IMG/VR virus record: IMGVR_UViG_3300032053_000025
Location: 1-64,000 of that record
DNA from: a virus
DNA: 64,000 nt
Reading direction: 5' to 3' (one strand)
Under the pieces are notes generated by a model. It was not told the DNA's origin. It worked only from the letters and a program-made list of their open reading frames with translations, and did no database searches. Positions within the stretch are counted from its first letter, which is position 1; each line of letters starts with the position of its first letter. This document shows, piece by piece, positions 6,995-31,338 of the stretch. A program made the position numbers and the translations under genes.

Positions 6995-7007
6995 TATGGA
7001 GGATTAA

Positions 7008-7097: not shown

Positions 7098-7134
7098 TCC
7101 CAATTTATATACGTCAAATTTAAGGAGAATTCAT

Positions 7135-7608: not shown

Positions 7609-7619
7609 AGGAGAATAAT

Positions 7620-7856: not shown

Positions 7857-8092
7857 AGAGATATATAGTTAAACCCAATAAAAAACAATTAGATATAATT
7901 AAACTTCATTGGGCCATGTTTAAAGCCGAGGAAACTTTATTTTGGGCTAAAATGGGCGAATTAGAGAAGAAAATGAGCAAGGAAACTGGGATAAAAGAAC
8001 TCGAATTTTTCAACTCAGATGGCGATTGGTGTGGGGTTGGGAATTCAGACCGAACAATGAAGCTTCTGCAACGCAATATATTGGAGAAATAA
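7853..8092 (+). CDS. Unknown small protein
   Basis: The 79-residue product has an aromatic helix (LHWAMFKAEETLFWAKM) and a charged C-terminal half. It overlaps the genes on both sides (ATGA at 7853, TAATG at 8090-8094), so it is firmly inside the operon. The spacing argues for translational coupling with the methyltransferase that follows. Function is unknown. Confidence 0.7.
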   Translation: MKRYIVKPNKKQLDIIKLHWAMFKAEETLFWAKMGELEKKMSKETGIKELEFFNSDGDWCGVGNSDRTMKLLQRNILEK

Positions 8093-8889: not shown

Positions 8890-11531
8890 TGAAATCTTTA
8901 CCATTGGTAAATATATACAACAAAAAACGTGAGATCTACCTGTTTTGTAGAGATGATAAGGGCAATTTATCTATCACAAAAAATAACGAATCTTACCCGT
9001 ATTTTTACGAGCCGGATGAACAAGGTAAATATACATCCTTCGATGGCAAGAAACTCCGCAAGGTTAGTGTAACCGAACCTTCAGAGGTTCGTAGATTAGC
9101 AAGTAATCAAGCATACGAGAGCGATGTTAGATATCCGCAGCGATATATTTTAGACAATATCGATATAATTACTCCAGCTCCCTATAAATATGCCTTAATG
9201 GATATTGAATGCTTAAAAGGGGAGAATGAATTTCCCGATCCTTTAACTGCCAAATTTCCAGTTACTTCGGTATCTTTATATAATAGTAAATATAATAAAA
9301 TTCGGACGTGGTTTATCGGAGATTTCGGCACCAAACGTAAACAGGCCGAATTAGATTTATTTAAAGCCTTCGTTGAGTATATGCAGAAGGCTAAGTTTGA
9401 TTTATTAAGTGGCTGGTTTATGAATGATTTTGACTGGCCCTACCTCTATCGAAGATTTGAGCAATTCCCCCAAAAATATTTCTTTGAGAAATCAAGCCAA
9501 TATAATAATCTAGCCTCTGCCATTTCTCCTATACATATGGTTAGGGGAGGCAAGAAAGAATATGATAATTTTTACCCGGCGGGCACAAGTATAGTGGACT
9601 ACTTGATGTTTTTCAAGAAGGTTTATAAAAACGAAAAAAGCTATGCGTTAGATAAGATAGCAGAAAAATATTTAGGTAGGGGTAAGGAAGAATTTAGCAA
9701 TGTAGATTTTAGTGTTATTGACGATAATATTAAATATCGCAATATTCGAGATGTCGAACTTATGAGGGACTTAGAACTCACCAAATTTAAGTTATTGCCC
9801 ATTTATGATGAAATGAGGAGATTAACAAAATGCCAATGGGAAGATTTCGTCTATCCCATGCGGCAAATCGATCCTTTAGTTTTAACTATTGCTAAACAAA
9901 AAGGGGTAATTCTTCCTTCTGCTCAGAGAGAAATGAACGACCCCGAAACATTTAAAGGTGCAGATAGAGATGCGTTAAAAGTTGGCAGATTTTTTAAAGT
10001 AGGTAAGTACGATTTAGATGGGGCCTACCTAAATATTATTAACGATTTAAATTTAGATGCTACTAATTTAAAACAGAAAGATAATGAAAACTGTATTGCT
10101 ATTTCTATTAGAGATAGAAAGACAGATGATATAATTGAAACTCATTATATTGAACAAAATCCAGAAGCGATTATGCCTACTTTAGCTCGGCAATTAATTG
10201 AGGCTAAAGCTAAGTATAAGGCATTAAAAAAGAATACGAATCCTGAACTACCCGAATATAAGAATATTGAATTGGTATACGAAGCAGTTAAAACAATTTT
10301 CCTCGTAGCCTGGGGAACCCTCGGCAACAAATTTTATAGATTGTATAATAAAATAATCAGTGGATTAATTACTTCCTCAGTAAGATTTTTGCTCCATCAT
10401 TTAATTAGGAAAACTAATGAAGATGGAAGCGAGGTAATTTATTTCGATACGGATGCCTTATTCTGTTTAGATCAAGGAATTAATATCCAACAAAAATTGG
10501 CTTCATGGATACAAGAATGGTCTCAAGAAAATTTCTATAAACCTTCTGCAATTAGAATTGATTATGAGGGGCATTTTGAAAGCTTATTTATTATTACTAC
10601 TAATAGATATAGGGGATATTTAAACATGGGAAAAGGCACGAAAAAAGAGGACAAAGGAATTCAGGTAAAAAGAGTTGACTCCTCGTATTTTATTGCTGAA
10701 TTTCAGGACGTTTTATTGGATAAGTTATTACTGGAAAAAATTGAACGAGACGAAACAGTTACTTGGGTACTAACCGAAATTGAAAGGATGAAAGTTTCCC
10801 CTTTCATTAAATTTTCCTTTCCATGTAGATTAGCAACTAAGGCTGAGCTATACAAGACTGAAGTTACTACCAAAAAAGGAAAGACCTATACTAAACTGCC
10901 ACCTATTCATGTACAAGCTTCAATGAATGCTAAAAAATTATATGATTTAGACTTTAGAGTAGGCGAGAATTATTATTATATTTATATTAATTATAATGAT
11001 AAAATGATTCCTATGGCCTTTGATGAGAAGAGGCTATCCCATATTAAAGGGGAGAATATTAATTGGGATAAAATGGTAGAAAGAAATATTCTGAACATTG
11101 CTACCTCCATATTCGATGCCATGAAATGGCCAATGGATGAGTTAATTACCCCAAAGGTTAGGAAGCCTAGAAAGGTGGCTTCAAATGCCTCAAAAAAGGC
11201 AGGGGAATGCCCTACAATCGACGATCTAAAGCAACCTAAGGTAAGTTTACCACCCAAAATTAAGGTTAAACCTGCAAATAATACCCAACTCATTGATACT
11301 ACAAGAGTAGTAACAGAATACTACATCTCCTCCCCTTTAATTACAGGCAATGTTAGAGTAGATATAAATGAGAAAATAATTTGGGCAATTCCTGCTTGGA
11401 ATAAGTTTATTGGGTTTGATTTAAGCATGTTTGTTAAAACTATTCATGCGGATAAAGTTGAGCAAATTTTAATAGGAGAAACGGTGGTGGCTAATATAAA
11501 ATTAGCAATCGTTCCGTACTTCCAAGAATAA
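8889..11531 (+). CDS. Family B DNA polymerase
   Basis: The 880-residue protein has a complete 3'-5' exonuclease: Exo I DIE (105-107), Exo II NDFD (179-182) and an Exo III-like Y283...D288. Polymerase motif A is KYDLDGAY (373-380), a variant of the usual DFxSLYP. Motif B lies around K468-G479 and motif C is YFDTDA (518-523) with both catalytic acids. It should copy the phage genome with proofreading. The divergent motifs A and B (LDGAY, LVAWGTLGN) set it apart from T4 gp43 and phi29-type polymerases; it looks like the type found in uncultured siphoviruses. The start overlaps the methyltransferase stop. Confidence 0.92.
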   Translation: MKSLPLVNIYNKKREIYLFCRDDKGNLSITKNNESYPYFYEPDEQGKYTSFDGKKLRKVSVTEPSEVRRLASNQAYESDVRYPQRYILDNIDIITPAPYKYALMDIECLKGENEFPDPLTAKFPVTSVSLYNSKYNKIRTWFIGDFGTKRKQAELDLFKAFVEYMQKAKFDLLSGWFMNDFDWPYLYRRFEQFPQKYFFEKSSQYNNLASAISPIHMVRGGKKEYDNFYPAGTSIVDYLMFFKKVYKNEKSYALDKIAEKYLGRGKEEFSNVDFSVIDDNIKYRNIRDVELMRDLELTKFKLLPIYDEMRRLTKCQWEDFVYPMRQIDPLVLTIAKQKGVILPSAQREMNDPETFKGADRDALKVGRFFKVGKYDLDGAYLNIINDLNLDATNLKQKDNENCIAISIRDRKTDDIIETHYIEQNPEAIMPTLARQLIEAKAKYKALKKNTNPELPEYKNIELVYEAVKTIFLVAWGTLGNKFYRLYNKIISGLITSSVRFLLHHLIRKTNEDGSEVIYFDTDALFCLDQGINIQQKLASWIQEWSQENFYKPSAIRIDYEGHFESLFIITTNRYRGYLNMGKGTKKEDKGIQVKRVDSSYFIAEFQDVLLDKLLLEKIERDETVTWVLTEIERMKVSPFIKFSFPCRLATKAELYKTEVTTKKGKTYTKLPPIHVQASMNAKKLYDLDFRVGENYYYIYINYNDKMIPMAFDEKRLSHIKGENINWDKMVERNILNIATSIFDAMKWPMDELITPKVRKPRKVASNASKKAGECPTIDDLKQPKVSLPPKIKVKPANNTQLIDTTRVVTEYYISSPLITGNVRVDINEKIIWAIPAWNKFIGFDLSMFVKTIHADKVEQILIGETVVANIKLAIVPYFQE

Positions 11532-13911: not shown

Positions 13912-15186
13912 ATGCAAAATTTATTCCTCAAAGAATTAGAATTAACTAATATACAATCCCATTCACATTTGCTCATCAATTTTGTGGATGGGGTCAACAT
14001 TATTTGCGGACCCACGGATAGTGGAAAATCCTCCATTATCCGCGCAATAGGCAACCTATTCTTCAACACTGGTGGTGACCTTCGTAAAGAAGGCACCAAA
14101 AAAAGTTCAATCAAAGGCACTCTCAGCAATGGAATAATCATCGAGAAAGTTAAATCAGAATCGGTCAATAGATATATTGTAACTAAAGGCACTCAAGTAG
14201 ATACTTATGACGCTATAGGTAAAACAATTCCCGAAGATATACTTAAAATTACGCAAATGCTACCCTTTACAGTAGAAAAGGAAGAGCTTATTCTGAATAT
14301 CTCCTCTCAGATAACTCTTCCTTTTTTAATGGGCAAAGATACTTCGGCTATTTTTAGGATGAAACTTTTAAACAAATTAACCAATAACGATTTAATAGAT
14401 ATAGTATTCCAAGGTTTAAACAAGGATATTCTACAATTAGGAAGGGATGAGAAATATGAAGCCGAAAATATTTCCAAATTGGAGAAAGATTTGGGAATTA
14501 TTAGCCTTGAATTATCAACCAAAAAAGAAAAAGCGAAAGAAATAAATGATAAATTAGTTTCCTTGAAATTGAAGTTTACGAAGTTGGAAACTTATCAAGC
14601 ATTACAATTGAAACTTAAATTAAATGCTGAGGAACTTGATAAGAATAAAATATTATTAAAATCAATTAAATTCCCAGAAGCTAGTATATTAAATTTCCTT
14701 CAAAAGAAGATCAAATCGGCAATGTCATTGCAAACTTTATGGAATAGATATTGTCATACACAGGAAGAATTAAAGGATAATAAGGTTTTGCTTAAAAATA
14801 TTAAAGTGATTCCGTCAGATATTGTATCTAAACTACAATTAAAGATAACCAAGATTTTACACTTAATAGAGCTAAAAATGAAACTACAACAAGTTACTTT
14901 AGCTTTAGAAGAAGCGAAGAATAATTATAGTAAACTTGTTATACCTAAATTTAATATTGCTGAGATTAAAAAGAAGATTGATAGACTGAATTTATTGGTA
15001 GATAGGCAAGATAAAATTAGGAATATATTGGAAGATTTGGGAGAGACTTCAACATTATTGGTGGATTGTAAAAATGAAATTGATAATTCCAACAAAGAGT
15101 ATAAGGATATTTTAATGAAGGTTAAGGTGTGTCCATTGACTAATTTGCCTATTAATGGGGATTGTTTAAAGGGAGTGAAGATATGA
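13912..15186 (+). CDS. N-terminal half of a split Rad50/SbcC-like ATPase
   Basis: The 424-residue protein begins with the SMC/Rad50 ATP-binding lobe: Walker A GPTDSGKSS at 33-41. From about residue 170 to 400 it is coiled coil. It ends at C407PLTNLPINGDC418, which resembles the zinc-hook apex of Rad50/SbcC, then stops. The ABC signature and Walker B needed for a working ATPase are absent here and occur in the separate gene at 16584-17207. The two proteins should assemble, with the Mre11-like nuclease encoded between them, to bind and process DNA ends. Its stop overlaps the nuclease start (ATGA). Confidence 0.82.
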   Translation: MQNLFLKELELTNIQSHSHLLINFVDGVNIICGPTDSGKSSIIRAIGNLFFNTGGDLRKEGTKKSSIKGTLSNGIIIEKVKSESVNRYIVTKGTQVDTYDAIGKTIPEDILKITQMLPFTVEKEELILNISSQITLPFLMGKDTSAIFRMKLLNKLTNNDLIDIVFQGLNKDILQLGRDEKYEAENISKLEKDLGIISLELSTKKEKAKEINDKLVSLKLKFTKLETYQALQLKLKLNAEELDKNKILLKSIKFPEASILNFLQKKIKSAMSLQTLWNRYCHTQEELKDNKVLLKNIKVIPSDIVSKLQLKITKILHLIELKMKLQQVTLALEEAKNNYSKLVIPKFNIAEIKKKIDRLNLLVDRQDKIRNILEDLGETSTLLVDCKNEIDNSNKEYKDILMKVKVCPLTNLPINGDCLKGVKI

Positions 15187-16106
15187 GTAAATTCCTTATC
15201 GTAACTGACATTCATCTTTCGGGTAAAAATCCTACCCAGTACATAGGTGATTATTGGCAAGATACTTTTGCCAAATTTATCGAAATCCTACAACTATCTA
15301 AGCAATATAAATGTGAAGCTATATTTTCCGGTGGGGATCTATTAGACTCCCCATTATTATCATTAACTTTAACGGATTTAATCATTGACGCTATCAACAA
15401 AAATAATATTCCTTTCTATGCAATCCCGGGCAACCATGAAGAAAATAATCATAATTGGAGCTTATCAGAAAATACAACCTTAGCACATATGTTTAGAAGG
15501 TCGGATTTGATTAAATTTTTGGATACATATGAGGATGATAAAGTTATAATTAAAGGTTGGGGATATTATCATGGCATTGAAGATGCAATTAAAGAAGGAT
15601 TGCTTAATGTACCTAAAACTAAGAAATGGAAGATCGGTCTTGTTCATGCTTTGATAACCGAAAAGAAATTCTTACCTTCGGTATTACATGTTCAAGCAGA
15701 AACAATACAATCAAATATAGATGCAATATTTTCTGGCCACTATCATCAACCATATCATATTATAGGAGATACTGAAGTATATAATTTAGGTGCAATCGGT
15801 CTTAGGGATATAAATGAAATTAAAATTAAACCTTCGGTGGTTATAATTGATACTTTAACAAGAGAGGTTACTCCAATCCAATTAAAGAATGTTAGGAAGG
15901 GCAAGGAATTGTTCGATTTGGCGGGTATAGAAGCGTCTAAAGAATATGATAAGAATATTGATGATTTTATTGCTTCATTGGAAACTTCGGTGGTGACGGA
16001 GGAAGGATTGAGGGGATCTATAGAAGGATTAGCTAAGGAAAAAAATATTGACAAGGATATAATAACCGATTTAATTAACCGAGTTGGTTTAGCGGAGGAT
16101 AAATAA
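15183..16106 (+). CDS. SbcD/Mre11-like nuclease (gp47 type)
   Basis: The start at 15183 (ATGA overlap, AGGGAG site) is preferred over 15162. The 307-residue protein shows the calcineurin-like phosphoesterase motifs in order: DIH (9-11), GGDLLD (50-55), GNHE (83-86) and GHYH (185-188). These bind two manganese ions in Mre11/SbcD/T4 gp47. The C-terminal 70 residues are helical and could bind the Rad50 coiled coil. It is flanked by the two halves of the Rad50-like ATPase. Confidence 0.88.
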   Translation: MSKFLIVTDIHLSGKNPTQYIGDYWQDTFAKFIEILQLSKQYKCEAIFSGGDLLDSPLLSLTLTDLIIDAINKNNIPFYAIPGNHEENNHNWSLSENTTLAHMFRRSDLIKFLDTYEDDKVIIKGWGYYHGIEDAIKEGLLNVPKTKKWKIGLVHALITEKKFLPSVLHVQAETIQSNIDAIFSGHYHQPYHIIGDTEVYNLGAIGLRDINEIKIKPSVVIIDTLTREVTPIQLKNVRKGKELFDLAGIEASKEYDKNIDDFIASLETSVVTEEGLRGSIEGLAKEKNIDKDIITDLINRVGLAEDK

Positions 16107-18956: not shown

Positions 18957-19098
18957 AGCTATTTTATTATTGATAGGAATTTATTGCTTATTTTTATTCA
19001 TAATTCCCGCTATATTAATGTGGTTATTTGAAAAATTAGGTACTTGGAAATTGTATAAGAAGTGGTTGAATGTTATTTTAAACGAGGATATAATATAA
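18940..19098 (+). CDS. Small membrane protein, 52 residues
   Basis: The start at 18940 (MSEIFK) is chosen because the longer frame from 18889 only duplicates the upstream gene. One long hydrophobic helix (AILLLIGIYCLFLFIIPAIL) is followed by an amphipathic basic segment. Its stop overlaps the start of the glycan cassette (TAATG). Confidence 0.6.
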   Translation: MSEIFKAILLLIGIYCLFLFIIPAILMWLFEKLGTWKLYKKWLNVILNEDII

Positions 19099-20372
19099 TG
19101 AATATTGGAGTAATTTTAGCTAGCGGTTCAGGAAATAGATTTCAATCTACCATTCCTAAACAGTACACAAAATTGAATGGTAGGCCGGTTATCTACTATG
19201 TTTTAGATGAATTTATTAAGTCTAAATTATTTGATAAAATTATAGTAGTAATCGATGATTTTAGGTTTAAATATTTGCTGGATAAATATCCAGTAATTGT
19301 AATTAAAGGGGGCGATACTCGCAATCGATCCATTGGGGAAGCAATCAAATATATATCTGATTATATTCCCAATACCCGAAATGTATTATTTCACGACGCG
19401 GTTCGCCCCTTAATTAAAGCCGAAGATTTATTCCAATATATGGATAGTTTAAATGGGGAAACAGTAATAGCCTCAATTACCACTGAAAAAGTAACCGATT
19501 CTTTATTATTTATTGATAGGTCAACAACCTGTTTAGTACAAACTCCCGAAGCTTTTGATTTTGAAATATTAAAATCAAGATTTAATCCTAAAGCAAATTA
19601 TACTGCAATTTATGAGCATTTAAAGCCCGCTATTAATGAGGAAATTGCACATATAGAATTAGGGCATCCAAACTATAAAATTACATATCAATACGATTTA
19701 TATATGCTTGAGCACTTAATTAAATACAATCAATATAAATCTACAATGCCTAATTTACAAGGCAAGAATATTCTATTGTTAGGTTCGACCGGAGGTATAG
19801 GTAAGGAAGTCTATAATCAATTAAAACAATTTCAACCTTTGAATATTTATTGCCCTTTACATTCAGAGATAGATTTATCCACTTATTTTATTGACAAATT
19901 GATGTCCAAATATACCTCAATCGATGTAATAATTAACTGTGCAGGTATAGCAATTAAAGATGAGGCTGAGAACTATGATATTCAAGAAAAAATATACAAT
20001 CAAACCTTTGATATTAATGTAAAAGCTCACTTACAGTTGATTAATTTTGCTGAACGTCAAAAGAGGCGGATTAATATAGTAACTATCAGTTCATCCTCAG
20101 TTACTAAGGGCAGACCTGGATATGGGATTTATTCTGCCTCTAAAATAGCCCTACAGAGCCTCATAGAGGCACAATCGGAAGCTTTAGCTGCCTCAGGTAT
20201 CTTTGTTACGTGTATATGCCCTGAACGAGTGGCAACTTCAATGGCAACAAATTTGCATGGGGAAGTTAATTTAGATGAAATGTTAAGTGTAGCTGAAGTT
20301 GCCCAAGCAATACTCTCATATAGTGATGTAAAAATAGGCGGAAAAATAATATATTTAAGAAGGGGGTTCTAA
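19098..20372 (+). CDS. Bifunctional cytidylyltransferase/short-chain reductase, Bcs1/Acs1-like (CDP-ribitol synthase)
   Basis: The 424-residue protein is a fusion. Residues 1-215 match IspD/TarI cytidylyltransferases: LASGSGNRF (7-15), PKQY (20-23), HDAVRP (99-104) and QTPEAF (148-153). Residues 220-424 are a short-chain dehydrogenase: GSTGGIGKEV (229-238), NCAG (280-283) and YSASK (Y345, K349). The same order occurs in Haemophilus Bcs1/Acs1, which reduces ribulose-5-phosphate and makes CDP-ribitol. That product is the donor for ribitol-phosphate transferases, and LicD/fukutin-type transferases follow directly. Substrate is inferred from architecture; another CDP-polyol cannot be excluded. 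The true start is at 19098, not the upstream ATG in frame. Confidence 0.82.
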   Translation: MNIGVILASGSGNRFQSTIPKQYTKLNGRPVIYYVLDEFIKSKLFDKIIVVIDDFRFKYLLDKYPVIVIKGGDTRNRSIGEAIKYISDYIPNTRNVLFHDAVRPLIKAEDLFQYMDSLNGETVIASITTEKVTDSLLFIDRSTTCLVQTPEAFDFEILKSRFNPKANYTAIYEHLKPAINEEIAHIELGHPNYKITYQYDLYMLEHLIKYNQYKSTMPNLQGKNILLLGSTGGIGKEVYNQLKQFQPLNIYCPLHSEIDLSTYFIDKLMSKYTSIDVIINCAGIAIKDEAENYDIQEKIYNQTFDINVKAHLQLINFAERQKRRINIVTISSSSVTKGRPGYGIYSASKIALQSLIEAQSEALAASGIFVTCICPERVATSMATNLHGEVNLDEMLSVAEVAQAILSYSDVKIGGKIIYLRRGF

Positions 20373-20374
20373 AA

Positions 20375-22243
20375 ATGCCTTACCGTAACCCGAATAATGC
20401 AGTAACAGTACTAACTTCATTAACCTCCATATTAACTACTTATGGTTTGAAGTATTTTCTTGATGGAGGAACCTTACTAGGAATTATACGTCAGAAGGCT
20501 TTCATCGAAAAAGACGGAGATATGGATATTGGTATTTTTACCAATGAATGGCAAGGATCAGAAGAGCATATTATATCAGCTTTAATAAATAAGGACTTTA
20601 AAATAGATAGGAATAATCCTCAATGTTTTGCTGTTAAGAAGGACAATATTCATATTGATTGCTGGAAATTCAATGAGAGGGACAATGATTATTTTCATTA
20701 TGGCTGGCAAGGCGAGTTTAGTTTTTGTAAAGACACTTTAGATACTTTAGATAAAGTTATTTTTATGAATCAAGAATTTACAACTCCCCATAATCCTAAA
20801 AAGTATCTCAAACATTTATATGGAGAGGATTGGCAAACTCCTAAATCTATGAATAAACCTTATGATTATCCTAACTATTCTGATAAGTCAACTTCAATGA
20901 GAGGATTGGCAAACTCCTATTCAATGAGAGTATTTTTGAAACAAGTTATTGATTTGCTCAATCAAAATGAAATTAGATATACCTTGATTTGTGGCTCGTT
21001 GCTTGGCGCATATAGGGATAAAAATATAATAGAAGGGGATGATGATTTTGATTTAGGCTTATTTGCGAAGGATTATGAGAAAGTTCGGCAATTATTAATT
21101 GATAATAATATCGTAATTAAAGCTCTATGGAGGAGAGAAATTTCAATTTTATCTACTCCACCTATCCCTAAATGTCAAATAGACCTATTCTTCTTAGAAA
21201 AGGAAGGTTCAAATTTATATTTATATTTATATAGCCAGAAACCCAATCCTTTATCTAAGAAATGGAATTTAGAATGGCGAAGGCAATTTCCGGCAAAATA
21301 TTTCAAGGAATTTGTACCTATTGATTTTATTGGATTAGAGGTTATGATACCTAAAGATACAGAAAAAATATTAGAACATCATTATGGAAACTGGAAGGTT
21401 AAGGATTCTAATGCTGAAGGAAATTTATGGAAACCAGATTCGATTGACCATAATTATAGAGAAATTGCAATTGTATCTACAAATTTTTTACGTAATGACA
21501 CCACGAAAGCATTTATAGAATCTATACAAAAAATACTGCCTAAAGAATGGTATAGGATTTATTTAGCAGACCAAGGCCCCTATGATGCAGAGATGGAGTT
21601 ATATTATGCAAAATTAAGGTTAGAAGGGCATGTTATTCAATGGTTGCCATACAACTGTGGATTAAGTTTTGCGAGGAATTACTTAGTTAAACAATCTAAA
21701 GAACCATACATATATTTAATGGATAATGATTTTATCCTTACTCCAGAGAGCGATCCTTCGCCAATGTTACAAATTTTAGAAGATAATCCTAATATAGGTA
21801 TTGTTGGTGCTAAATTAATCGAACATGAAGACTATCATTTTAATTTGATATGGTCGCTAAATCCTCGCAAATTATATTATGTGCCTACTTTGCCAACTTC
21901 AATTAGGCAAACTAAAGCATATAAATGCCAGAAAGCAATTTCATATAGGTTATGTGATATTGTCCTTAATTTTGCTTTATATAAAAGAGAAGTATTAAAT
22001 GACCTTTTATGGGATGAGGAATTAAAATTAGTCGAGCACTCCTCGTATTTTTTAAAACTAAAAGAATTAAACAAATGGCAGGTTGCATATACCCCAGATG
22101 TATTAGCTATTCATACTAAAGATAGGAAGGATGAAACTTATAGGACGTTTAGAGGTATTTTAAATGCTGAAAAATGCGAACAATTATTTCTTAAAAAATG
22201 GAAATTAGATAAACAAGATATAATCAAAATAAGAGGAGTATAA
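20375..22243 (+). CDS. Tandem LicD-type phosphotransferase fused to a GT2 glycosyltransferase
   Basis: The 622-residue protein has two LicD/fukutin-like domains. The first has GGTLLG (31-36) and KDGDMDIG (46-53). The second has GSLLG (207-211) and GDDDFDLG (221-228). From about residue 360 a GT2-like domain follows (REIAIVST, NCGLSFARN, and a DxD-type MDND at 449-452). LicD enzymes transfer phosphocholine, and the related FKTN/FKRP proteins transfer ribitol phosphate from CDP-ribitol. Placed 2 bases after a CDP-ribitol synthase, it is the likely consumer. It probably builds a ribitol-phosphate-bearing glycan. Both LicD domains keep their acidic residues. Confidence 0.8.
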   Translation: MPYRNPNNAVTVLTSLTSILTTYGLKYFLDGGTLLGIIRQKAFIEKDGDMDIGIFTNEWQGSEEHIISALINKDFKIDRNNPQCFAVKKDNIHIDCWKFNERDNDYFHYGWQGEFSFCKDTLDTLDKVIFMNQEFTTPHNPKKYLKHLYGEDWQTPKSMNKPYDYPNYSDKSTSMRGLANSYSMRVFLKQVIDLLNQNEIRYTLICGSLLGAYRDKNIIEGDDDFDLGLFAKDYEKVRQLLIDNNIVIKALWRREISILSTPPIPKCQIDLFFLEKEGSNLYLYLYSQKPNPLSKKWNLEWRRQFPAKYFKEFVPIDFIGLEVMIPKDTEKILEHHYGNWKVKDSNAEGNLWKPDSIDHNYREIAIVSTNFLRNDTTKAFIESIQKILPKEWYRIYLADQGPYDAEMELYYAKLRLEGHVIQWLPYNCGLSFARNYLVKQSKEPYIYLMDNDFILTPESDPSPMLQILEDNPNIGIVGAKLIEHEDYHFNLIWSLNPRKLYYVPTLPTSIRQTKAYKCQKAISYRLCDIVLNFALYKREVLNDLLWDEELKLVEHSSYFLKLKELNKWQVAYTPDVLAIHTKDRKDETYRTFRGILNAEKCEQLFLKKWKLDKQDIIKIRGV

Positions 22244-22244
22244 A

Positions 22245-23645
22245 ATGCCATATCAATTACCTATAATTACCGAAAGTTTAATGCCGATGGATCTAAAAGC
22301 TGTAGAAAATTTAATTATTCCTAAAGTGGAAAATAAGGATATAGGGATAGTATTTGATAGTTTTCTTAGGGATAAATTGGTATTTAATTTAATTGAGAGT
22401 ATATGCAAATATGCACCCGGTTATAGAATGTATATTGCAGACCAAGGAATATTTGACCCTATTAAAAATTCCCTTTATTTAAGGTTAGAAGCTAAAGGTC
22501 ATAAGATTATTTATTGCGGTTTCGATTCAGGTGTAGCAAGATGTAGAAATGAAGCAATTAAACAAGCAACAGAACCTTATGTATTCCTATGCGATGGAGA
22601 CAACATATTTATACCTCAAACTAATTTAGAAAAATTAAAAGACTTAATGAAGTCTAGATTTACTCTATATTGGCTTGCAGGTTTAGAAGTAATTGATGAT
22701 AAGCCTATGTATTATGAAAATAACTTAGCCATAAAAGATAGGGTAGTACATTATACTCCTCAGACTGAGGAGTTTAAAAATAGTAATAAAGCCGTATTTA
22801 TGTGCGATATGACTATGAATCAAGGCTTAGTTAAGACTAAGTTATTTGACATTGTTAAATATGACTCAAGAATGATGTTAGCAGAGCATCTAGATTTATT
22901 TTTGCAGATTCAGACTAAAACCAAATACAAAGTCGGTATTACTAAACTATCCTCCATAGGTAATCAAAATTTTAAAATAGACAATCCTATTTATAATAAG
23001 TATAGAGGTCGCAATAAATTGTTTTGGCAGTATTATATTGAAAAATGGGGAATAGATTATGTTAACGATTGGAAGATTGAAACTCCTGATAATAAACTCG
23101 AATATGTATTAGTAGAGGAGAAACCTATAATTCCTCTCCCAATAATTCCAATAATACCAGTTATGCCTATAGTTAAAACAGAGATTGCAATGGTTAAGCA
23201 ACCTCCAATTACAATTATACCTACACCTGTGACTGCCCCTAAACCAATACCGATAATTCCTAAACGAACAGAACCTTATAATGAAGTTACTCAAGCCTTA
23301 TTAGATTTTGCTTCAATTTTAGATTCCAATGAAAAGGATTATTATTTGCTGAAAGGCACATGCTTGAATTATTTATTGCATAAACCTTTGTTGAATAAAG
23401 TTTATATCGGTCTTGCTTTAAATAAATCTATTGTAGAAATTTTGGTTAAAAAAGGATATGAGCAAAATGCGGCCAATATATTCAGGAAGAATGGTATCGA
23501 TTTTATAATTGAGTCTTATATTCCTTCAAGGTTTAAAGAAGGCAATGCTTTAGAAGGAAAGAATTTTAAAGTTCCTTATCCTGCGGTAGCGTATTTAATC
23601 GAACAATTTGGTAAAGATTGGGCTTTAACAATATTAAAGGAATAA
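22245..23645 (+). CDS. GT2-like protein with proline-rich linker and degenerate LicD-like domain
   Basis: The 466-residue protein has an N-terminal GT2-like domain (IGIVFDSFLRDK, YIADQG, and a CDGDN DxD). A proline/isoleucine-rich linker (about residues 288-342) leads to a C-terminal domain with LKGTCLNYLL, which aligns with the GG(T/S)LLG start of LicD but lacks the DxD acids. The end (FGKDWALT) also resembles the LicD C-terminus. The transferase half could be active while the LicD-like half is probably a binding module. It overlaps the next gene (TAATG). Confidence 0.7.
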   Translation: MPYQLPIITESLMPMDLKAVENLIIPKVENKDIGIVFDSFLRDKLVFNLIESICKYAPGYRMYIADQGIFDPIKNSLYLRLEAKGHKIIYCGFDSGVARCRNEAIKQATEPYVFLCDGDNIFIPQTNLEKLKDLMKSRFTLYWLAGLEVIDDKPMYYENNLAIKDRVVHYTPQTEEFKNSNKAVFMCDMTMNQGLVKTKLFDIVKYDSRMMLAEHLDLFLQIQTKTKYKVGITKLSSIGNQNFKIDNPIYNKYRGRNKLFWQYYIEKWGIDYVNDWKIETPDNKLEYVLVEEKPIIPLPIIPIIPVMPIVKTEIAMVKQPPITIIPTPVTAPKPIPIIPKRTEPYNEVTQALLDFASILDSNEKDYYLLKGTCLNYLLHKPLLNKVYIGLALNKSIVEILVKKGYEQNAANIFRKNGIDFIIESYIPSRFKEGNALEGKNFKVPYPAVAYLIEQFGKDWALTILKE

Positions 23646-24418
23646 TGGCAGAATTAGCAATAATAACGACAACACTATTTAGGGATAACCTTACCAAACA
23701 ATTCTTTACTAATCTTAGAAATTTGTTAGGTAAAGGTAACTATAAATTATACCTTGCAGATTTAGGGGTTTATTCAATAGAAGCAGAGCATAATTATCAT
23801 TGGTTGTTAGAAGTTCGAGGACACCATTATGAATGGTTACCTTTCAATTGTGGATTGGGTCATACTTATAATGCCCTTTTAGCCAAAGTTAAGGAACCTT
23901 TCATATATTTTATCAATAATGATGCTATATTGGCTTTAAAGTGCCATCCTAAGCCTCTACAAGCCGTTCTGTTGCACGATCTATCTATAGGTGCAGTAGG
24001 AGGTCAAACAATAGGGAAATCGACTAATAGGCACAATTTAAGCCTATCTCACAAGCCTAAAACAAGATTATTAGTTACTCCTGTACCTTTAGCGGCAAAA
24101 AGAAAATTGCCTATAGAATCTTGTAGGAATTTGGATTATTATTTGTGTGATTATGTTGAAGGCCCAGTATTGTTCAGAAGAGAAGTATTTGAGGATATTA
24201 ACTTCGATCCTTCATTTAAGAATGGTAATTTATTGGATTTATTTTTAAGATTAAAAGCAACTGAAAAATGGAATGTTGCTCAGGTACCTACTATGCAGAT
24301 TAAGAATTTAATTAATAAAAAAAGGGGAGTATATAAGATGTTTAATTTACCTGAAGATAAGTTATTTATGGATAAATGGGGATTAAAAAAGAAAGATTTT
24401 ATTATAGTAGGAGAATAA
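23645..24418 (+). CDS. GT2-like glycosyltransferase
   Basis: The start at 23645 overlaps the previous stop. The 257-residue protein shares its plan with the GT2 domain of the tandem LicD protein: AIITTTLFRDN, YLADLG, WLPFNCGLGHTYN. The DxD position reads NNDA, so one acid is lost. It may act on a sugar nucleotide in the same pathway or have lost catalysis. I cannot assign a sugar. Confidence 0.7.
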   Translation: MAELAIITTTLFRDNLTKQFFTNLRNLLGKGNYKLYLADLGVYSIEAEHNYHWLLEVRGHHYEWLPFNCGLGHTYNALLAKVKEPFIYFINNDAILALKCHPKPLQAVLLHDLSIGAVGGQTIGKSTNRHNLSLSHKPKTRLLVTPVPLAAKRKLPIESCRNLDYYLCDYVEGPVLFRREVFEDINFDPSFKNGNLLDLFLRLKATEKWNVAQVPTMQIKNLINKKRGVYKMFNLPEDKLFMDKWGLKKKDFIIVGE

Positions 24419-24420
24419 TT

Positions 24421-25065
24421 ATGGAAAAGCTATTATTTATAGGAAGCCATTTAGACGATATAGAAATTGCAGCGGGAGGCACTGTTGCTAAAGCAATTCA
24501 AAAAGGACACGTTATAAAAACGGTCATTATGTCTAAATCCGACTATACTAACTATGACGGAAAAATATTACGGACATGGACTGAAGCCCACGAAGAAGGA
24601 ATAGAGGCCCTACATATTTTAGGCGTAACCGATATAGATATTTTATCTTTTTCCGTAAAGGATACTCCTTATGATTCTTCCTCTATAGAGGCACTTAATA
24701 AAATTATGGATAAATTTCAACCTACACAAATCATAACCCACTGGCCATTTGATACACATCAATCTCATCGCAATACTGCATTGGCTTCTATATCAGCAGG
24801 ACGGAACTTTAATAACATATTAATGTATGAATCCTTTCCACCTAGCGGAAGAAGTTATGTAGCATTTAAACCTCAAGTATATTCGGATATTACCGATGTT
24901 TTAGCACTCAAGATGCAATCCTTAAAAGCACATAAAAGTCAATATAAGAAATATGGAGAACTGTGGATAGATGCCGTAATTGGAAGAGCCCAATTAAGAG
25001 GGTGGGAATGTGGTAATAAGTATGCTGAATGTTTTGAATTATTAAGAAGCGACCTAATACTATGA
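24421..25065 (+). CDS. PIG-L/LmbE-type N-deacetylase
   Basis: The start at 24421 is preferred because the ORF start at 24376 overlaps the previous gene. The 214-residue protein has SHLDD (9-13) and THWPFDTHQSHRN (106-118), the zinc-binding motifs of LmbE/PIG-L deacetylases (H10, D13, H113 or H116). The family removes acetyl groups from GlcNAc-type sugars. Within this cassette it probably deacetylates a glycan intermediate. Confidence 0.85.
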   Translation: MEKLLFIGSHLDDIEIAAGGTVAKAIQKGHVIKTVIMSKSDYTNYDGKILRTWTEAHEEGIEALHILGVTDIDILSFSVKDTPYDSSSIEALNKIMDKFQPTQIITHWPFDTHQSHRNTALASISAGRNFNNILMYESFPPSGRSYVAFKPQVYSDITDVLALKMQSLKAHKSQYKKYGELWIDAVIGRAQLRGWECGNKYAECFELLRSDLIL

Positions 25066-25205
25066 TACATTATTATCCTCATAATGATTGGATTGAACAT
25101 AAATTAGAAGGCACTCAATGTATTTGCGAACCTAAAATTGATTGGCATTTAGGTATAGTTATTCATAATTCTGCCGATGGCAGAGAAGAGAAGGAGAGTA
25201 TATGA
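25062..25205 (+). CDS. Unknown 47-residue protein
   Basis: The frame overlaps the PIG-L stop (ATGA at 25062) and the next start (ATGA at 25202), which makes it a real member of the operon. The product is His/Cys-rich (CICEP, then HLGIVIHNSADGREE). Small proteins with this layout are common among phage hypotheticals; function is not known to me. Confidence 0.6.
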   Translation: MIHYYPHNDWIEHKLEGTQCICEPKIDWHLGIVIHNSADGREEKESI

Positions 25206-26425
25206 TAATTTCAATTCACCAGCCCGAGGCTTTCTGTCATTTATCCCTTTTAGATACAATATCTAAATCTGAGTTGTTTATTATTGGGGACGATTTTCAA
25301 TATCAGAAATCGTACTTTGACAATCGCAATAAAATTCGATCCAACTCTAAAGAAGGCTGGTCATGGCTAACTATCCCCGTTCAAGCTTCCAACAATCATA
25401 TTGCTATAAAGGATATTAAGGTAGCTTCGGGTGATTGGAAGAATAAATTACTCAATCAATTAACATCGAGCTATCAACATGCTCCTTATTTTAATGTTTA
25501 TTTTCCTCAATTGCAAGAATTATTGAAGACACAAAGCGAATACCTTATTGATTATACTTTACCTATACTACAATGGTTCCTACTCCAATTTAAAATTTAT
25601 ACTCCAATTAAATTAATGAGCAAATTAAATATCCAATCTGATAATGGTTCTGATAAGGTTTTGGAAATTTGTAAAAAGGTGGGAACAAATACTTACTTAT
25701 CGGGTCCAAGTGGGAAGGATTATCTGAATTTAGCTTCCTTTAAGGAAGCAGGAATAGACTTGCAGTATCATAATTATTTACATCCTTATTACCAATCATT
25801 TCCAAAGGTAGATATGCTCCCAGGCTTATCTGCTTTAGATTGTTTATTCTCACATGGACCAAACTCAAACAATATTATGCAGGCTAAAGGTATAGGTAGC
25901 ATGGCTACAATTATGGGGAATATTGAATATAAACATAGGTCCATTCTTGAGGTATTTGGCGGGGATGGTACGGGCCAATTATCATCATATGGTAACACAG
26001 TTGATTGTTCTAATTTAACAATATGGGAATTAGATTTGCAAAATGTATATAAACTTAGGGATAAATATCCTCATGCTAATGTTAAGCATGTTGATTCTTT
26101 AATTGAAGCCAAAAAGACTAATCAAACCTTTGATATTATTATAATTGATACTCCGGCATTGATGTCTAACAATAAATTATTACCTCAAATATCAAACTTA
26201 CTTACCGAGGATGAGGATGGAATACTTATATTTAGAGCAATTAAACAATCGTGGAATAATCATCCTTCAGTGGAAGTTGACCAACCCATTGAATATTGGA
26301 AATTAATTTTTCAACAGGACTTTGATATTATTAATATGAAAGAAGTGCAAAGAGAATATTTTTGGAGTGAAGGTAAGTGGAAATTATGGTTAAGCAATTA
26401 CCTTTTCCAATTAAGGAGGATATAA
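25202..26425 (+). CDS. WbqC-like protein fused to a class I methyltransferase
   Basis: The 407-residue protein starts with IHQPEAF and has GDDFQYQKSYFDNRNKIRS (residues 29-47), typical of the WbqC family found in O-antigen and glycan gene clusters. From about residue 245 a Rossmann domain follows (ILEVFGGDGTGQ, then IIIIDTP), an AdoMet-dependent methyltransferase. WbqC proteins are linked to amino-sugar modification. The fusion suggests stepwise modification of one sugar. The next gene starts one base after its stop. Confidence 0.75.
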   Translation: MIISIHQPEAFCHLSLLDTISKSELFIIGDDFQYQKSYFDNRNKIRSNSKEGWSWLTIPVQASNNHIAIKDIKVASGDWKNKLLNQLTSSYQHAPYFNVYFPQLQELLKTQSEYLIDYTLPILQWFLLQFKIYTPIKLMSKLNIQSDNGSDKVLEICKKVGTNTYLSGPSGKDYLNLASFKEAGIDLQYHNYLHPYYQSFPKVDMLPGLSALDCLFSHGPNSNNIMQAKGIGSMATIMGNIEYKHRSILEVFGGDGTGQLSSYGNTVDCSNLTIWELDLQNVYKLRDKYPHANVKHVDSLIEAKKTNQTFDIIIIDTPALMSNNKLLPQISNLLTEDEDGILIFRAIKQSWNNHPSVEVDQPIEYWKLIFQQDFDIINMKEVQREYFWSEGKWKLWLSNYLFQLRRI

Positions 26426-27562: not shown

Positions 27563-28258
27563 ATGGAAATTAAGCAATACAAAGACTATCAAATCCAACT
27601 TCGATCCTCCTCAGATGCAGGAGTATTCCAAGAAATTATCATTAACAATTGTTATGGTATTGATTTTAAATGGTTTGATAAAGTAAAGACCATCATTGAT
27701 ATTGGTGGCCATATAGGTATATTTAGTTTATTTATTGCTCCTTATGTTGATAAGATTTATACCTTTGAACCTTATTGGCAAAATTATAGATTATTGGTAG
27801 AAAATGTAGACCAGAATAATTTACTATCTAAAATTAAATGTCATCAAAAAGCAGTTACCCATTATGAAGGAGTAATTGATTTTTATGAATCTAAACAAAC
27901 CCATGTAAGACATACTATTGTACCTCCGGGGCAATTAAAATTTTGCGACCAAGGGGAGAAAATAATTGTGCCTTGCACTTCTCTCTTCAATATTATGTCT
28001 ACTATTGGGCATCCAACCTTATTGAAAATAGATATTGAAGGTGGAGAATATTCCTTACTATTCAATACACCCGAGCAAGCATTTAAAAATATTACTTACA
28101 TTGTTATGGAAACTCACCATGACGAATCTTCCCTTTTCAATAAAGACGATCTTATCAAAAAATTAGAAAGTTATGGCTACAAAGTTTCCTGGAAATTTAA
28201 CTGGAAAGACCCAGACTATAAAATGACAACCGGAGATTTAATAGCCATAAAAGAATAG
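27563..28258 (+). CDS. FkbM-family methyltransferase
   Basis: The 231-residue protein has the AdoMet motif DIGGHIG (46-52), FEP (68-70) and a C-terminal KIDIEGGE motif, the FkbM signature. FkbM enzymes O-methylate sugars or lipids in polysaccharide and natural-product clusters. A GGAG site precedes the start. It likely caps or modifies the glycan made here. Confidence 0.85.
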   Translation: MEIKQYKDYQIQLRSSSDAGVFQEIIINNCYGIDFKWFDKVKTIIDIGGHIGIFSLFIAPYVDKIYTFEPYWQNYRLLVENVDQNNLLSKIKCHQKAVTHYEGVIDFYESKQTHVRHTIVPPGQLKFCDQGEKIIVPCTSLFNIMSTIGHPTLLKIDIEGGEYSLLFNTPEQAFKNITYIVMETHHDESSLFNKDDLIKKLESYGYKVSWKFNWKDPDYKMTTGDLIAIKE

Positions 28259-28265
28259 GAGTAAA

Positions 28266-29141
28266 ATGAGTTATAAACTCCAATTATTAAAAGAAAGTTT
28301 AATACCAATTACTGCCCAAGATTTAATTAATATAGGTGGAATTCCACCTATAGACCCCACCAAACAAGTGGCTATTGTTATTGATTCCTTCCTTAGAGAT
28401 AAATGTTTATTAATCCTCCTTAAAAGTATATTTAAATTCGCACCTCATTATAAAATTTATATTACAGGCCAGGGCATCTATAGTAAAGAGAAAGATGCCC
28501 TTTTTTGTTTATTGAAGGTAGCAGGCCATACCATAATTAATTGTGGCTTTGATGCAGGATTAGGTCAATGTCACAAAAAGATAGTAGAATTTGTGACTGA
28601 GCCTTATATATTTTTCTGCCATGAGGACGCTTTATTTACTGATAAAACTAACTTAGAATCAATGGTTAATATAATCAAACTTAATAGATATAGATTAGGT
28701 TGGCTATCTCCTTCTTCCTTATTCAATCAACCTTCCCATTTATTATTGAAAAATTTAAATTTAGCTATTACTCCTCTTGAAGTAGAATTTAAAAATAGTC
28801 ATAGAGATCCATTTATTTGCGATATTGCAGGTACTCAAGGTTTAGTTAAATCAACCTTATTTAGTTCAATCCAATATGATGCTCAATTTAAAATGAATGA
28901 AACTTTAGACTTAATGTTAAACATGAAATTTAATACTGTTAATAGAGTAGCAATCACCAACCAATCTATATTATGGCATCAAGAACCTTGTGAGCATCCT
29001 ATCTATCTTCAATATAAGCATAGGGAATGGTATTATGACCAATTATTAAGGACTAAATGGCAATTTACAAGTATTAATGGAAGAAAAATTAAAAGGGATA
29101 ATACTAAGTTTCTTTATGTTATGGAGGAAAATAATGGATAA
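28266..29141 (+). CDS. GT2-like glycosyltransferase paralog
   Basis: The 291-residue protein aligns with the N-terminal part of the protein at 22245 (SFLRDK, GQGIY, NCGFDAGLG, TEPYIFF). The DxD site reads CHEDA, so the first acid is replaced by His. A GGAG site precedes the ATG. The last 8 bases overlap the next gene. Confidence 0.7.
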   Translation: MSYKLQLLKESLIPITAQDLINIGGIPPIDPTKQVAIVIDSFLRDKCLLILLKSIFKFAPHYKIYITGQGIYSKEKDALFCLLKVAGHTIINCGFDAGLGQCHKKIVEFVTEPYIFFCHEDALFTDKTNLESMVNIIKLNRYRLGWLSPSSLFNQPSHLLLKNLNLAITPLEVEFKNSHRDPFICDIAGTQGLVKSTLFSSIQYDAQFKMNETLDLMLNMKFNTVNRVAITNQSILWHQEPCEHPIYLQYKHREWYYDQLLRTKWQFTSINGRKIKRDNTKFLYVMEENNG

Positions 29142-29900: not shown

Positions 29901-30062
29901 ATGTTATTAGGAGCTCGAGTTCTAGCTAGGATTGACAATAAAGTCAAAGAATGTAGAGTAATTGATATTCAAGGGGACAATCTACAATTGGAAGCTGTTA
30001 CCGGCGAAATTATAAGCCGAAAATATTGGCAAGTAAATGGGGTTAAAAATGAGCAAGCCTAA
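29901..30062 (+). CDS. Unknown 53-residue protein
   Basis: AGGAGG at 29891-29896 precedes ATG. The small protein looks like a compact beta-barrel (LLGARVLARIDNKVKECRV). Its stop overlaps the next gene. Function unknown. Confidence 0.6.
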   Translation: MLLGARVLARIDNKVKECRVIDIQGDNLQLEAVTGEIISRKYWQVNGVKNEQA

Positions 30063-30777
30063 TCAGTTAATTATTCTTGGGGGAGGAGTATCGGTAACTG
30101 AAGGAATTGAATTAGGCCTTTGGGATAAAATTAAAGACCACTATGTTATGGGACTTAATTTTGCCTTCAAAACATTTAATCCAACCTTCACTTGTTTTGT
30201 TGACCCTATAAGTTTCTACCGAACATATAAGAGTGATATATTTAATCTGCCTTTAATTGTAGGTCGATATTCGAAAGATATTGTTAAGGATATTTGGCCC
30301 AATACAATTCTATTAAAGGATACTTGGATTTATAAGAGGGATTGCTCTGAGGGAGTTTACAATATATTTTTATGTGGAATATTTGGATTATCGTTAGCAA
30401 TTTATTTAGCAGATAAGATAGATATAAAAGAAATTTTCATGTTAGGGATAGATGGTGGAAACATAACTGGCAACCATGATAAATTTGGAAAATGGGAATC
30501 ACATTACTATAGTTCAGAATTTACCCATAAGGGAACAGGTAAAATTAAGACCTATCATAAAGATGATGCTATACATAAAATGTATAAGGCTTTTGAGCAA
30601 GTTCAAGACATCAATATTTACAATGTTTCGCCTTTAAGTAGGATTAAACAGTTTCCTAAGATTGATTATTTGACATTCTTCGATAAAATTGAGACTACAA
30701 CTTATGACCAAAACTTACTTAGACTTGATATTAAACAACATTGCATAGATTTAGCAAACTTGCAAAAACAACATTAA
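30049..30777 (+). CDS. MptE-like/DUF115-type Rossmann protein
   Basis: The start at 30049 is chosen from the ATG in the overlap; the frame from 30037 is longer only by a few codons. The 242-residue protein begins ILGGGVSV and has VMGLNFAFKTFNP and CFVDPISFYR, the pattern of MptE-like/DUF115 proteins, which include transferases in flagellin and surface glycosylation. It could also be related to sialyltransferase-type folds. It ends the glycan cassette. Confidence 0.6.
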   Translation: MSKPNQLIILGGGVSVTEGIELGLWDKIKDHYVMGLNFAFKTFNPTFTCFVDPISFYRTYKSDIFNLPLIVGRYSKDIVKDIWPNTILLKDTWIYKRDCSEGVYNIFLCGIFGLSLAIYLADKIDIKEIFMLGIDGGNITGNHDKFGKWESHYYSSEFTHKGTGKIKTYHKDDAIHKMYKAFEQVQDINIYNVSPLSRIKQFPKIDYLTFFDKIETTTYDQNLLRLDIKQHCIDLANLQKQH

Positions 30778-31119: not shown

Positions 31120-31337
31120 AATATCTTAGCAATAAACCATTCTCGGTGCCTGTAGGCACCTTACCATTCAATATTAAGCCTAATTGCGATTCATGCTGGC
31201 ATTTTAAACGTTCAAACTTCTTTAGTAAACATCAATGTAATAATTGCCATTCATGGAAAAACTTCCTCAAAAAGGAAGTTAATTTTAAACAGGTTATTGA
31301 TAATTTTCTATATCAATTATTTTTGGAGAAGAAATAA
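31116..31337 (+). CDS. Small zinc-binding protein
   Basis: The 73-residue protein has CDSC and CNNC pairs spaced as in a zinc finger. A perfect 7-base inverted repeat (GGTGCCT/AGGCACC, 31145-31160) lies in the coding sequence. No family recognised. Confidence 0.6.
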   Translation: MKYLSNKPFSVPVGTLPFNIKPNCDSCWHFKRSNFFSKHQCNNCHSWKNFLKKEVNFKQVIDNFLYQLFLEKK

Positions 31338-31338
31338 C

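What the first reader, a model, noticed from the sequence alone, without database searches (positions are those of the whole stretch)
19098..22243. Predicted CDP-ribitol synthase next to tandem LicD/fukutin-like transferases
Seen: IspD/TarI-type domain plus SDR domain in one protein, then two intact LicD domains two bases later. Known: Bcs1/Acs1 makes CDP-ribitol, and FKTN/FKRP of the LicD-related class use it. Inference: a phage ribitol-phosphate pathway, possibly new.
Basis: partly seen in the sequence, partly recalled or inferred. Interest (0 to 1): 0.78.

Follow-up and report, generated by a model that had tools for sequence, protein, structure and literature searches.

The report
Phage CDP-alditol and LicD sugar-phosphate cassette
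A bacterial virus carries, inside its DNA-replication region, an enzyme that probably makes an activated sugar alcohol next to a protein that probably attaches the sugar alcohol's phosphate to a sugar chain, a kind of surface chemistry usually made by bacteria or, in muscle, by humans.

Summary
ORF 19098-20372 is an IspD/TarI-like cytidylyltransferase fused to a short-chain reductase (SDR), both with complete active sites. The first LicD half folds like human FKRP.

The cassette is real and recurrent: two other records of the same phage family (86 and 78 kb) have IspD-SDR, GT2 and LicD side by side, and the fusion is among their best-conserved shared proteins. In bacteria, IspD-SDR genes outside the Actinomycetota often lie near LicD (21 of 33 loci).

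Best reading: the phage makes a CDP-alditol and uses LicD to put alditol phosphate on a glycan. "Ribitol" is not established: the phage enzymes score far below the curated ribitol-5-phosphate cutoff (81 vs 166 bits), which Proteus and Streptomyces fusions pass. The acceptor is unknown.

It is not wholly new: Benler 2021 reported adjacent ispD and licD in the replication module of gut phages, read as isoprenoid and choline genes. New are the SDR fusion, the LicD-LicD-GT2 protein, the phage family and the functional reading. Side lead: phage YerA41, with a homologous fusion, has 184-Da repeats on thymidine that match tetritol phosphate.

The parts
19098..20372 (+). IspD/TarI-like cytidylyltransferase (aa 1-211) fused to SDR reductase (aa 216-424): predicted CDP-alditol synthase
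   Evidence: Pfam and NCBIfam; model pLDDT 88.4; VIA Z 26.9 to IspD 1vpa, 26.1 to TarI 6xhs, 25.7 to human L-xylulose reductase 1pr9; R14, K21, D100, R103, R141, K194, G229/G233/G235, N307, S332, Y345, K349 invariant in 29 sequences
20375..20899 (+). LicD domain 1, closest to the single LicD of the two related phages
   Evidence: 33-37% to L094/L095 LicD; model matches FKRP 6kal, Z 17.4, 2.7 A over 157 residues
20900..21436 (+). LicD domain 2, more divergent, motif intact
   Evidence: phmmer to FKRP 6kaj E 7.8e-6; 23-25% to L094/L095 LicD
21437..22243 (+). GT2 glycosyltransferase domain fused to the LicD pair
   Evidence: Pfam GT2 E 2e-8; phmmer to B4GALNT1 9h6j E 2.5e-7; 30-34% to the stand-alone GT2 of L094/L095
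22245..23645 (+). GT2 with a proline-rich linker and a C-terminal stretch (from about 23229) that aligns with LicD but lacks the D-x-D motif
   Evidence: Pfam GT2 E 2.5e-6; alignments A3 and A4
23618..24418 (+). GT2-like paralogue
   Evidence: no Pfam match; 34% to the GT2 domain above in alignment A6
24421..25065 (+). PIG-L/BshB-like N-deacetylase
   Evidence: Pfam PIG-L E 3e-17
25202..26425 (+). WbqC-like protein with a C-terminal extension
   Evidence: Pfam WbqC E 4e-54
27563..28258 (+). FkbM-family methyltransferase
   Evidence: TIGR01444 81.9 bits, cutoff 37.7
28266..29141 (+). GT2-like paralogue
   Evidence: no Pfam match; 23-27% to the GT2 of L094/L095
29077..29889 (+). GT2-like glycosyltransferase
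   Evidence: Pfam GT2 22.7 bits, just under the cutoff of 23.3
30037..30777 (+). conserved protein of unknown fold, shared with both related phages near the cassette
   Evidence: 32-34% to L094/L095; no Pfam match

Best explanation
The two genes form a donor-and-transferase pair. The fused SDR reduces a ketose (or aldose) phosphate to an alditol phosphate and the IspD-like domain couples it to CTP, giving a CDP-alditol. The most likely single candidate is CDP-ribitol from ribulose 5-phosphate (my estimate about 0.4; another pentitol about 0.25; tetritol or other the rest). The LicD domains then transfer alditol phosphate from CDP-alditol to sugars, at least one probably set by the fused GT2 domain, so that one polypeptide could build sugar-alditol-P or sugar-alditol-P-alditol-P. 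Neighbouring GT2 paralogues, PIG-L, WbqC-like and FkbM enzymes extend or trim the glycan. The proteins look soluble and lie with replication genes, so the acceptor is in the host cytoplasm during replication: a host lipid-linked envelope precursor (superinfection exclusion) or a virion protein. Shown: domains, conserved active sites, fold, neighbourhood, recurrence. Inferred: activity, alditol, order of transfer, acceptor, benefit.
For: Domain architecture and active sites. LicD half 1 folds like FKRP, a CDP-ribitol-using transferase. IspD-SDR beside LicD is a repeated bacterial pattern: 21 of 33 non-actinobacterial loci hold LicD, 13 within 100 bases, against 0 of 47 actinobacterial loci (whose printed 32 and 48 count one Bacteroidales locus without LicD, L064, on the wrong side); LicD occurs in only 2 of 14 whole control genomes. 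The closest cellular relatives with a LicD neighbour, Clostridia L012-L014, have LicD, a stand-alone IspD and IspD-SDR in a row. The cassette recurs in two related phages. IspD-bearing records of the family all have LicD (3 of 3) against 1 of 17 without IspD. Literature: Bcs1 makes CDP-ribitol (PMC10299916, passages); FKTN and FKRP use it (PMC4873967, passages); a bacterial LicD protein, Cps7C, is a CDP-polyol transferase related to FKRP (PMC11666461, passages); the E. faecalis EPA locus with a TarI homologue and LicD proteins makes a ribitol-phosphate polymer (PMC7188991, passages). No hydrophobic segment of the transmembrane kind in the cluster proteins at 19-30 kb.
Against: The phage fusion scores 81 bits on the ribitol-5-phosphate cytidylyltransferase model (cutoff 166) and 115 on ispD (cutoff 181); the related phages and Clostridia behave the same way, unlike Proteus or Streptomyces fusions. 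The tree puts them in a separate clade. LicD proteins also use CDP-choline. Two other phages with a homologous fusion lack LicD in the stretch read (L009, L010). The cassette is accessory: 3 of 20 family records, many of them fragments. No acceptor is known.
Confidence: 0.6

Rival explanations
1. The IspD domain is a methylerythritol-phosphate cytidylyltransferase that boosts host isoprenoid synthesis, and LicD is a separate phosphocholine transferase (the reading of Benler et al. 2021 for adjacent ispD and licD genes in Flandersviridae phages).
For: The best NCBIfam hit is ispD, 115 bits, above the ribitol model at 81. Benler et al. proposed this for another phage group (PMC8008677, passages).
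Against: 115 bits is below the ispD cutoff of 181. The IspD domain is fused to a reductase that the MEP step does not need, and no other MEP gene or choline kinase appeared in the Pfam scans. IspD-SDR genes sit with LicD in bacterial polysaccharide loci.
Confidence: 0.08
2. The cassette decorates the phage's own DNA with an oligosaccharide carrying alditol phosphate, as suspected for Yersinia phage YerA41, whose homologous fusion lies in a cluster its authors link to sugar-modified nucleotides.
For: YerA41 fusion 26% identical over 96%. YerA41 thymidine carries a substituent of about 1 kDa with 184-Da steps (PMC9023294, sections 13, 27 and 34 read); its authors' cluster remark is in PMC7354516 (passages). 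The window cassette also lies among replication genes.
Against: No thymidylate synthase, deoxynucleoside kinase or TET-like gene appeared in Pfam scans of about 90 ORFs of this virus. This virus has ordinary Dam and N6/N4 DNA methyltransferases, and the pooled Pfam list of the two related phages holds two Mom proteins, which fits restriction-sensitive DNA. YerA41 has no LicD in the 29 kb read.
Confidence: 0.08
3. LicD transfers phosphocholine or phosphoethanolamine (or a phosphonate) made by the host, and the fusion feeds an unrelated CDP-sugar step.
For: The LicD protein's best NCBIfam hit is the choline phosphotransferase Mf1, 92.9 bits (cutoff 225). Mf1 is a proven choline transferase that resembles FKRP (PMC11982090, passages).
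Against: The score is far below the cutoff. The CDP-alditol synthase architecture is next to LicD in 3 of 3 IspD-bearing phages of the family and near it in many bacteria. No choline kinase or PEP mutase was seen in the Pfam scans.
Confidence: 0.14
4. The cassette works as described but its alditol is not a pentitol: for example a tetritol or a hexitol.
For: Separate clade and low ribitol-model score. The YerA41 184-Da step equals a tetritol phosphate, not ribitol phosphate at 214.
Against: YerA41 is a very distant relative on a long branch. Ribulose 5-phosphate is the substrate of the characterised Bcs1.
Confidence: 0.3

Closest known systems
Bcs1/Acs1-type bifunctional CDP-ribitol synthase (H. 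influenzae) and bacterial 'bifunctional cytidylyltransferase/SDR' proteins
   Same: IspD-like domain then SDR in one chain; catalytic residues kept; LicD often near in bacteria
   Different: Phage and Clostridia proteins are shorter, form their own clade, and fall below the ribitol-5-phosphate model cutoff
FKTN/FKRP and bacterial LicD CDP-polyol transferases (Cps7C, EPA LicD proteins)
   Same: LicD/NTase fold, D-x-D-x-D motif, CDP-alditol source next door; half 1 matches FKRP at Z 17.4
   Different: Two LicD domains and a GT2 in one soluble phage protein; substrate untested
Flandersviridae phages with adjacent ispD and licD (Benler et al. 2021, PMC8008677)
   Same: ispD and licD side by side in the replication module of a phage, present in only some members
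   Different: No SDR fusion or LicD-LicD-GT2 fusion is described in the passages read; other phage group (Bacteroides hosts); read there as isoprenoid and choline genes. Those genomes were not examined here
Yersinia phages YerA41 and GN1
   Same: Homologous IspD-SDR fusion in a phage sugar-enzyme cluster near DNA polymerase
   Different: 26% identity, KpsC-like transferases instead of LicD, deoxynucleoside kinase present, DNA heavily modified

Membership tests
Bcs1-type CDP-ribitol synthase | IspD/TarI-like domain followed by SDR domain in one polypeptide | tested here: met
Bcs1-type CDP-ribitol synthase | Catalytic residues of both domains conserved (roles recalled from IspD and SDR biochemistry) | tested here: met
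   invariant across 29 aligned fusions
Bcs1-type CDP-ribitol synthase | Passes the NCBIfam D-ribitol-5-phosphate cytidylyltransferase cutoff (166 bits) | tested here: not met
   81 bits; L094 81.5, L095 79.7; Proteus 183.5 and Streptomyces 168.6 pass; Parabacteroides 161 and Prevotella 160 just miss
Bcs1-type CDP-ribitol synthase | Groups with characterised Bcs1/Acs1 in a tree | tested here: inconclusive
   separate clade with Clostridia, but no characterised Bcs1 was in the tree
Bcs1-type CDP-ribitol synthase | Makes CDP-ribitol from ribulose 5-phosphate, NADPH and CTP | not testable with these tools
   needs enzyme assay
LicD family (PF04991) | Score above the curated cutoff | tested here: met
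   81.5 vs 22.6 bits
LicD family (PF04991) | Metal-binding D-x-D motif in both halves | tested here: met
   alignment A5
FKTN/FKRP-like alditol-phosphate transferase | FKRP catalytic-domain fold | tested here: met
   half 1 Z 17.4, next unrelated chain 13.1; half 2 only by sequence, E 7.8e-6
FKTN/FKRP-like alditol-phosphate transferase | Uses CDP-ribitol on a sugar or alditol phosphate | not testable with these tools
   needs enzyme assay
MEP-pathway IspD | Passes the ispD equivalog cutoff (181 bits) | tested here: not met
   115 bits
Phage thymidine hypermodification cluster (YerA41 type) | Pyrimidine-modifying genes (thymidylate synthase-like, dNK, TET) present | tested here: inconclusive
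   none seen in Pfam scans of about 90 ORFs; small ORFs and unknown families remain

The most novel reading that the evidence does not exclude
IspD-SDR enzymes define a class of phages that build short teichoic-acid-like alditol-phosphate chains on their own particles. In YerA41 the chain would be HexNAc plus 2-4 tetritol phosphates on thymidine; in the window's family it would sit on a virion protein or DNA, made by a one-protein LicD-LicD-GT2 version of the human dystroglycan ribitol-phosphate pathway.
Probability: 0.13. Interest if true: 0.88.

Novelty: new variant of a known kind. Interest (0 to 1): 0.52.

Why it matters
If the pair works as predicted, phages carry their own CDP-alditol chemistry rather than only meeting ribitol phosphate as a receptor, and published 'isoprenoid' ispD genes beside licD in gut phages need another look. 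It offers a compact, soluble, possibly two-step LicD enzyme related to FKRP, the protein lost in some muscular dystrophies, for structural and biochemical work. It also gives a concrete, testable proposal for the unidentified YerA41 thymidine modification.

Tried and rejected
Rejected: 'the fusion is a CDP-ribitol synthase' as a settled statement. Rejected as phage relatives: four 'Bacteriophage sp.' records that gave IspD hits (H3, H5, H6, H7) show no fused SDR and no LicD, and their neighbours read by eye as bacterial chromosomal genes; the MaAM05 hit lies beside ribosomal-protein genes. Led nowhere: single-protein scans of viral contigs (no relative); a PDB sequence search for a solved IspD-SDR fusion (none among the best 60 rows); the GT2 half of the LicD model is below pLDDT 50 in much of its length, so its matches to TarP/TarS/RmlT (Z about 9.6) show only a GT-A fold; a search for a TarI-ribitol contact paper. 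L009's neighbour at 3882-4862 looked TagF-like to me by eye but matched neither the TagF profile made here nor Pfam, so I do not claim it; L010's neighbour is TagF-like (PF04464).

LicD survey: 34 viral LicD loci, 4 with a stand-alone IspD of 202-221 aa within the stretch, 0 with an IspD-SDR fusion; that scan missed L094, L095 and G019, so it undercounts. Host: a Shine-Dalgarno-like motif precedes 24 of 62 window ORFs against 1 of 12 and 0 of 14 in two Bacteroidota loci, but 6 of 23 and 5 of 19 in L094/L095; with the Clostridia sister clade this hints at a Bacillota-like host, weakly.

Own error found: the script counted L064 (Bacteroidales, no LicD hit) as actinobacterial; its printed 21 of 32 and 0 of 48 should read 21 of 33 and 0 of 47.
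Full report
Observation. The first, 19098-20372, is IspD (aa 5-207) plus SDR (aa 263-386 in Pfam; aa 216-424 by fold). The second, 20375-22243, begins two bases after the first stops and holds LicD, LicD and GT2. The window belongs to an 88,621-base virus record with tail and other structural genes on the minus strand and a plus-strand block of replication genes: primase with an intein, RecA-like, DNA polymerase B, exonuclease, SMC-like, phosphoesterase and ligase genes. The cassette lies in that block.

Are the enzymes intact? Residues R14, K21, D100, R103, R141 and K194 of the cytidylyltransferase and the glycine motif, Asn, Ser and Tyr-x-x-x-Lys of the SDR are invariant in 29 aligned fusions; which of them are catalytic is recalled from IspD and SDR work. 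The model of the fusion (mean pLDDT 88.4) matches IspD and TarI equally (Z 26.9, 26.1, 25.4) and, for the SDR half, human L-xylulose reductase at Z 25.7, close to FabG-type rows. LicD half 1 matches all six listed FKRP entries at Z 15.9-17.4, above the next family (LnuA, 13.1). LicD half 2 matches FKRP by sequence (E 7.8e-6). Both halves keep D-x-D-x-D.

Relatives in phages. Single-protein scans found nothing. Alignment-based scans found L009 (34%) and L010 (29%), then L094 and L095 (48-49%). In L094 (86-kb contig) the order is IspD-SDR, GT2, LicD, polysaccharide-type epimerase; in L095 (78 kb) IspD-SDR, GT2 and LicD follow in the same order. The GT2 and the LicD are the separate counterparts of domains fused in the window. 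These records belong to the window's phage family: counting alignments of at least 150 aa, 31 and 25 proteins of the window's virus have a match, with median identity 32% and 30%; the fusion ranks second of 31 and first of 25. Scans with two structural proteins gave 21 further records. I searched 17 of these 21 (not those of L121, L123, L125 and L127) together with the window's record and those of L094 and L095: of the 20, IspD is in 3 and LicD in 4, the same 3 plus G019, where a 722-aa protein is GT2-TPR-LicD-LicD. Many of the 20 are fragments. The cassette is therefore accessory but kept.

Relatives in bacteria. With a LicD profile made here from the Proteus neighbour, LicD lies in 21 of 33 non-actinobacterial loci, 13 of them within 100 bases of the fusion, and in 0 of 47 actinobacterial loci (corrected for L064). 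On a Parabacteroides plasmid, fusion and LicD lie two bases apart inside a Wzy-type locus. The nearest cellular sequences are four Clostridia-type MAGs; three have LicD, a stand-alone IspD and IspD-SDR in a row and the fourth has a stand-alone IspD and, by eye, a phosphatase-like gene instead. The tree (51 rows, IQ-TREE) joins the window with L094 and L095 (99/96) and these with the Clostridia (100/100), apart from the other fusions; YerA41 is a very long branch of unsure place.

Which alditol? NCBI's ribitol-5-phosphate cytidylyltransferase model (cutoff 166) gives Proteus 183.5, Streptomyces 168.6, Parabacteroides 161, Prevotella 160, but window 81, L094 81.5, L095 79.7, and two Clostridia-type fusions 72 and 90. 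The ispD model (cutoff 181) gives window 115. So the clade is assigned to neither. I keep 'CDP-alditol' and hold ribitol as the likeliest single guess, since ribulose 5-phosphate is at hand in every cell and LicD is a known partner of CDP-ribitol.

Literature seen. Passages only: PMC4873967 (ISPD, FKTN, FKRP; notes ISPD-LicD fusions in bacteria), PMC10299916 (Bcs1), PMC11666461 (Cps7C, a LicD enzyme that uses a CDP-polyol), PMC7188991 (E. faecalis EPA: TarI homologue EF2172 and LicD proteins proposed to add ribitol phosphate in a polymer whose structure contains it), PMC11982090 (Mf1), PMC11269942, PMC6697681, PMC7354516 (YerA41), PMC8008677; PMC13137986 was irrelevant. Abstract and sections 13, 27 and 34 of PMC9023294. 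PMC8008677 is the key prior art: some 'Flandersviridae' phages have an insertion of adjacent ispD and licD in the replication module; the authors knew of neither enzyme in phages before and read them as isoprenoid and phosphorylcholine genes. I did not examine those genomes. My searches (listings) showed no paper that proposes a phage-encoded CDP-alditol pathway; the library holds open-licence papers only.

Acceptor. The cluster proteins at 19-30 kb show no transmembrane-like segment (highest 19-residue Kyte-Doolittle mean 1.65; the next gene, 30037-30777, reaches 1.94), and I saw no flippase or lipid-priming enzyme among them. DNA as acceptor is disfavoured here: no pyrimidine-modifying gene in the Pfam scans, normal DNA methyltransferases, and two Mom matches in the pooled scan of the related phages. 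That leaves envelope precursors or virion proteins. The choice is open.

Side lead on YerA41. Its fusion is 26% identical over 96%. Its thymidine adducts were reported at m/z 918, 1102 and 1286, with counterparts 572, 756 and 940, a common 346 and steps of 184, unidentified. By calculation, thymidine 242.090 + C4H8O3 104.047 + HexNAc 203.079 + n x C4H9O6P 184.014 gives [M+H]+ 918.25, 1102.27 and 1286.28 for n = 2, 3, 4, and HexNAc + n x 184.014 + H+ gives 572.11, 756.13 and 940.14. 184 is the nominal mass of a tetritol-phosphate residue and of no other of the 14 residues I tried; 571 has four decompositions in the set tried. The fit is to nominal masses only, reads the reported 346 as a neutral loss, and C14H22N2O8 has other structures (for example a trihydroxypentyl-deoxyuridine); the authors themselves saw no hexose, hexosamine or HexNAc step. 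It is a lead, not a result.

Verdict. Real, recurrent and worth an assay. The chemistry class is well supported, the specific sugar is not, and the ispD-licD pairing in phages is already in print with another reading.

Noticed in passing
L002 (YerA41, MW570730.1) 13989-15368, and PMC9023294: The unidentified 184-Da repeat on YerA41 thymidine equals a tetritol-phosphate residue, and all three adduct masses fit thymidine + C4H8O3 + HexNAc + 2-4 tetritol phosphates (nominal masses only).
   Followed up: partly
window 22245-23645, C-terminal part from about 23229: A GT2 protein ends in a proline-rich linker and a stretch that aligns with LicD but has lost the D-x-D motif; the 853-aa protein of L094 (14279-16840) seems by eye to end similarly.
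   Followed up: partly
L141 3263-5431 (record G019, same phage family): A 722-aa GT2-TPR-LicD-LicD protein with both LicD motifs intact, in a record where no IspD was found: tandem LicD recurs without the donor enzyme.
   Followed up: partly
L012, L013, L014 around 6400-9300: Clostridia MAGs with LicD, stand-alone IspD and IspD-SDR in a row: two cytidylyltransferases side by side, perhaps for two CDP-alditols.
   Followed up: no
window 1753-4932 and 31297-32907: Primase-like ORF with a LAGLIDADG intein; the 31297 phosphoesterase ORF matches the intein part of an L094 protein (25% over 296 aa), so it probably holds an intein too.
   Followed up: no
L092 8629-8886 (virus position about 87,630): A phage-encoded acyl carrier protein (PP-binding E 2e-10).
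   Followed up: no
MT835701, MT836480, MT836784, MT837822, MW495066: Records labelled phage whose IspD hits lie among genes that look bacterial-chromosomal (by eye, or by their own annotation in MW495066).
   Followed up: partly
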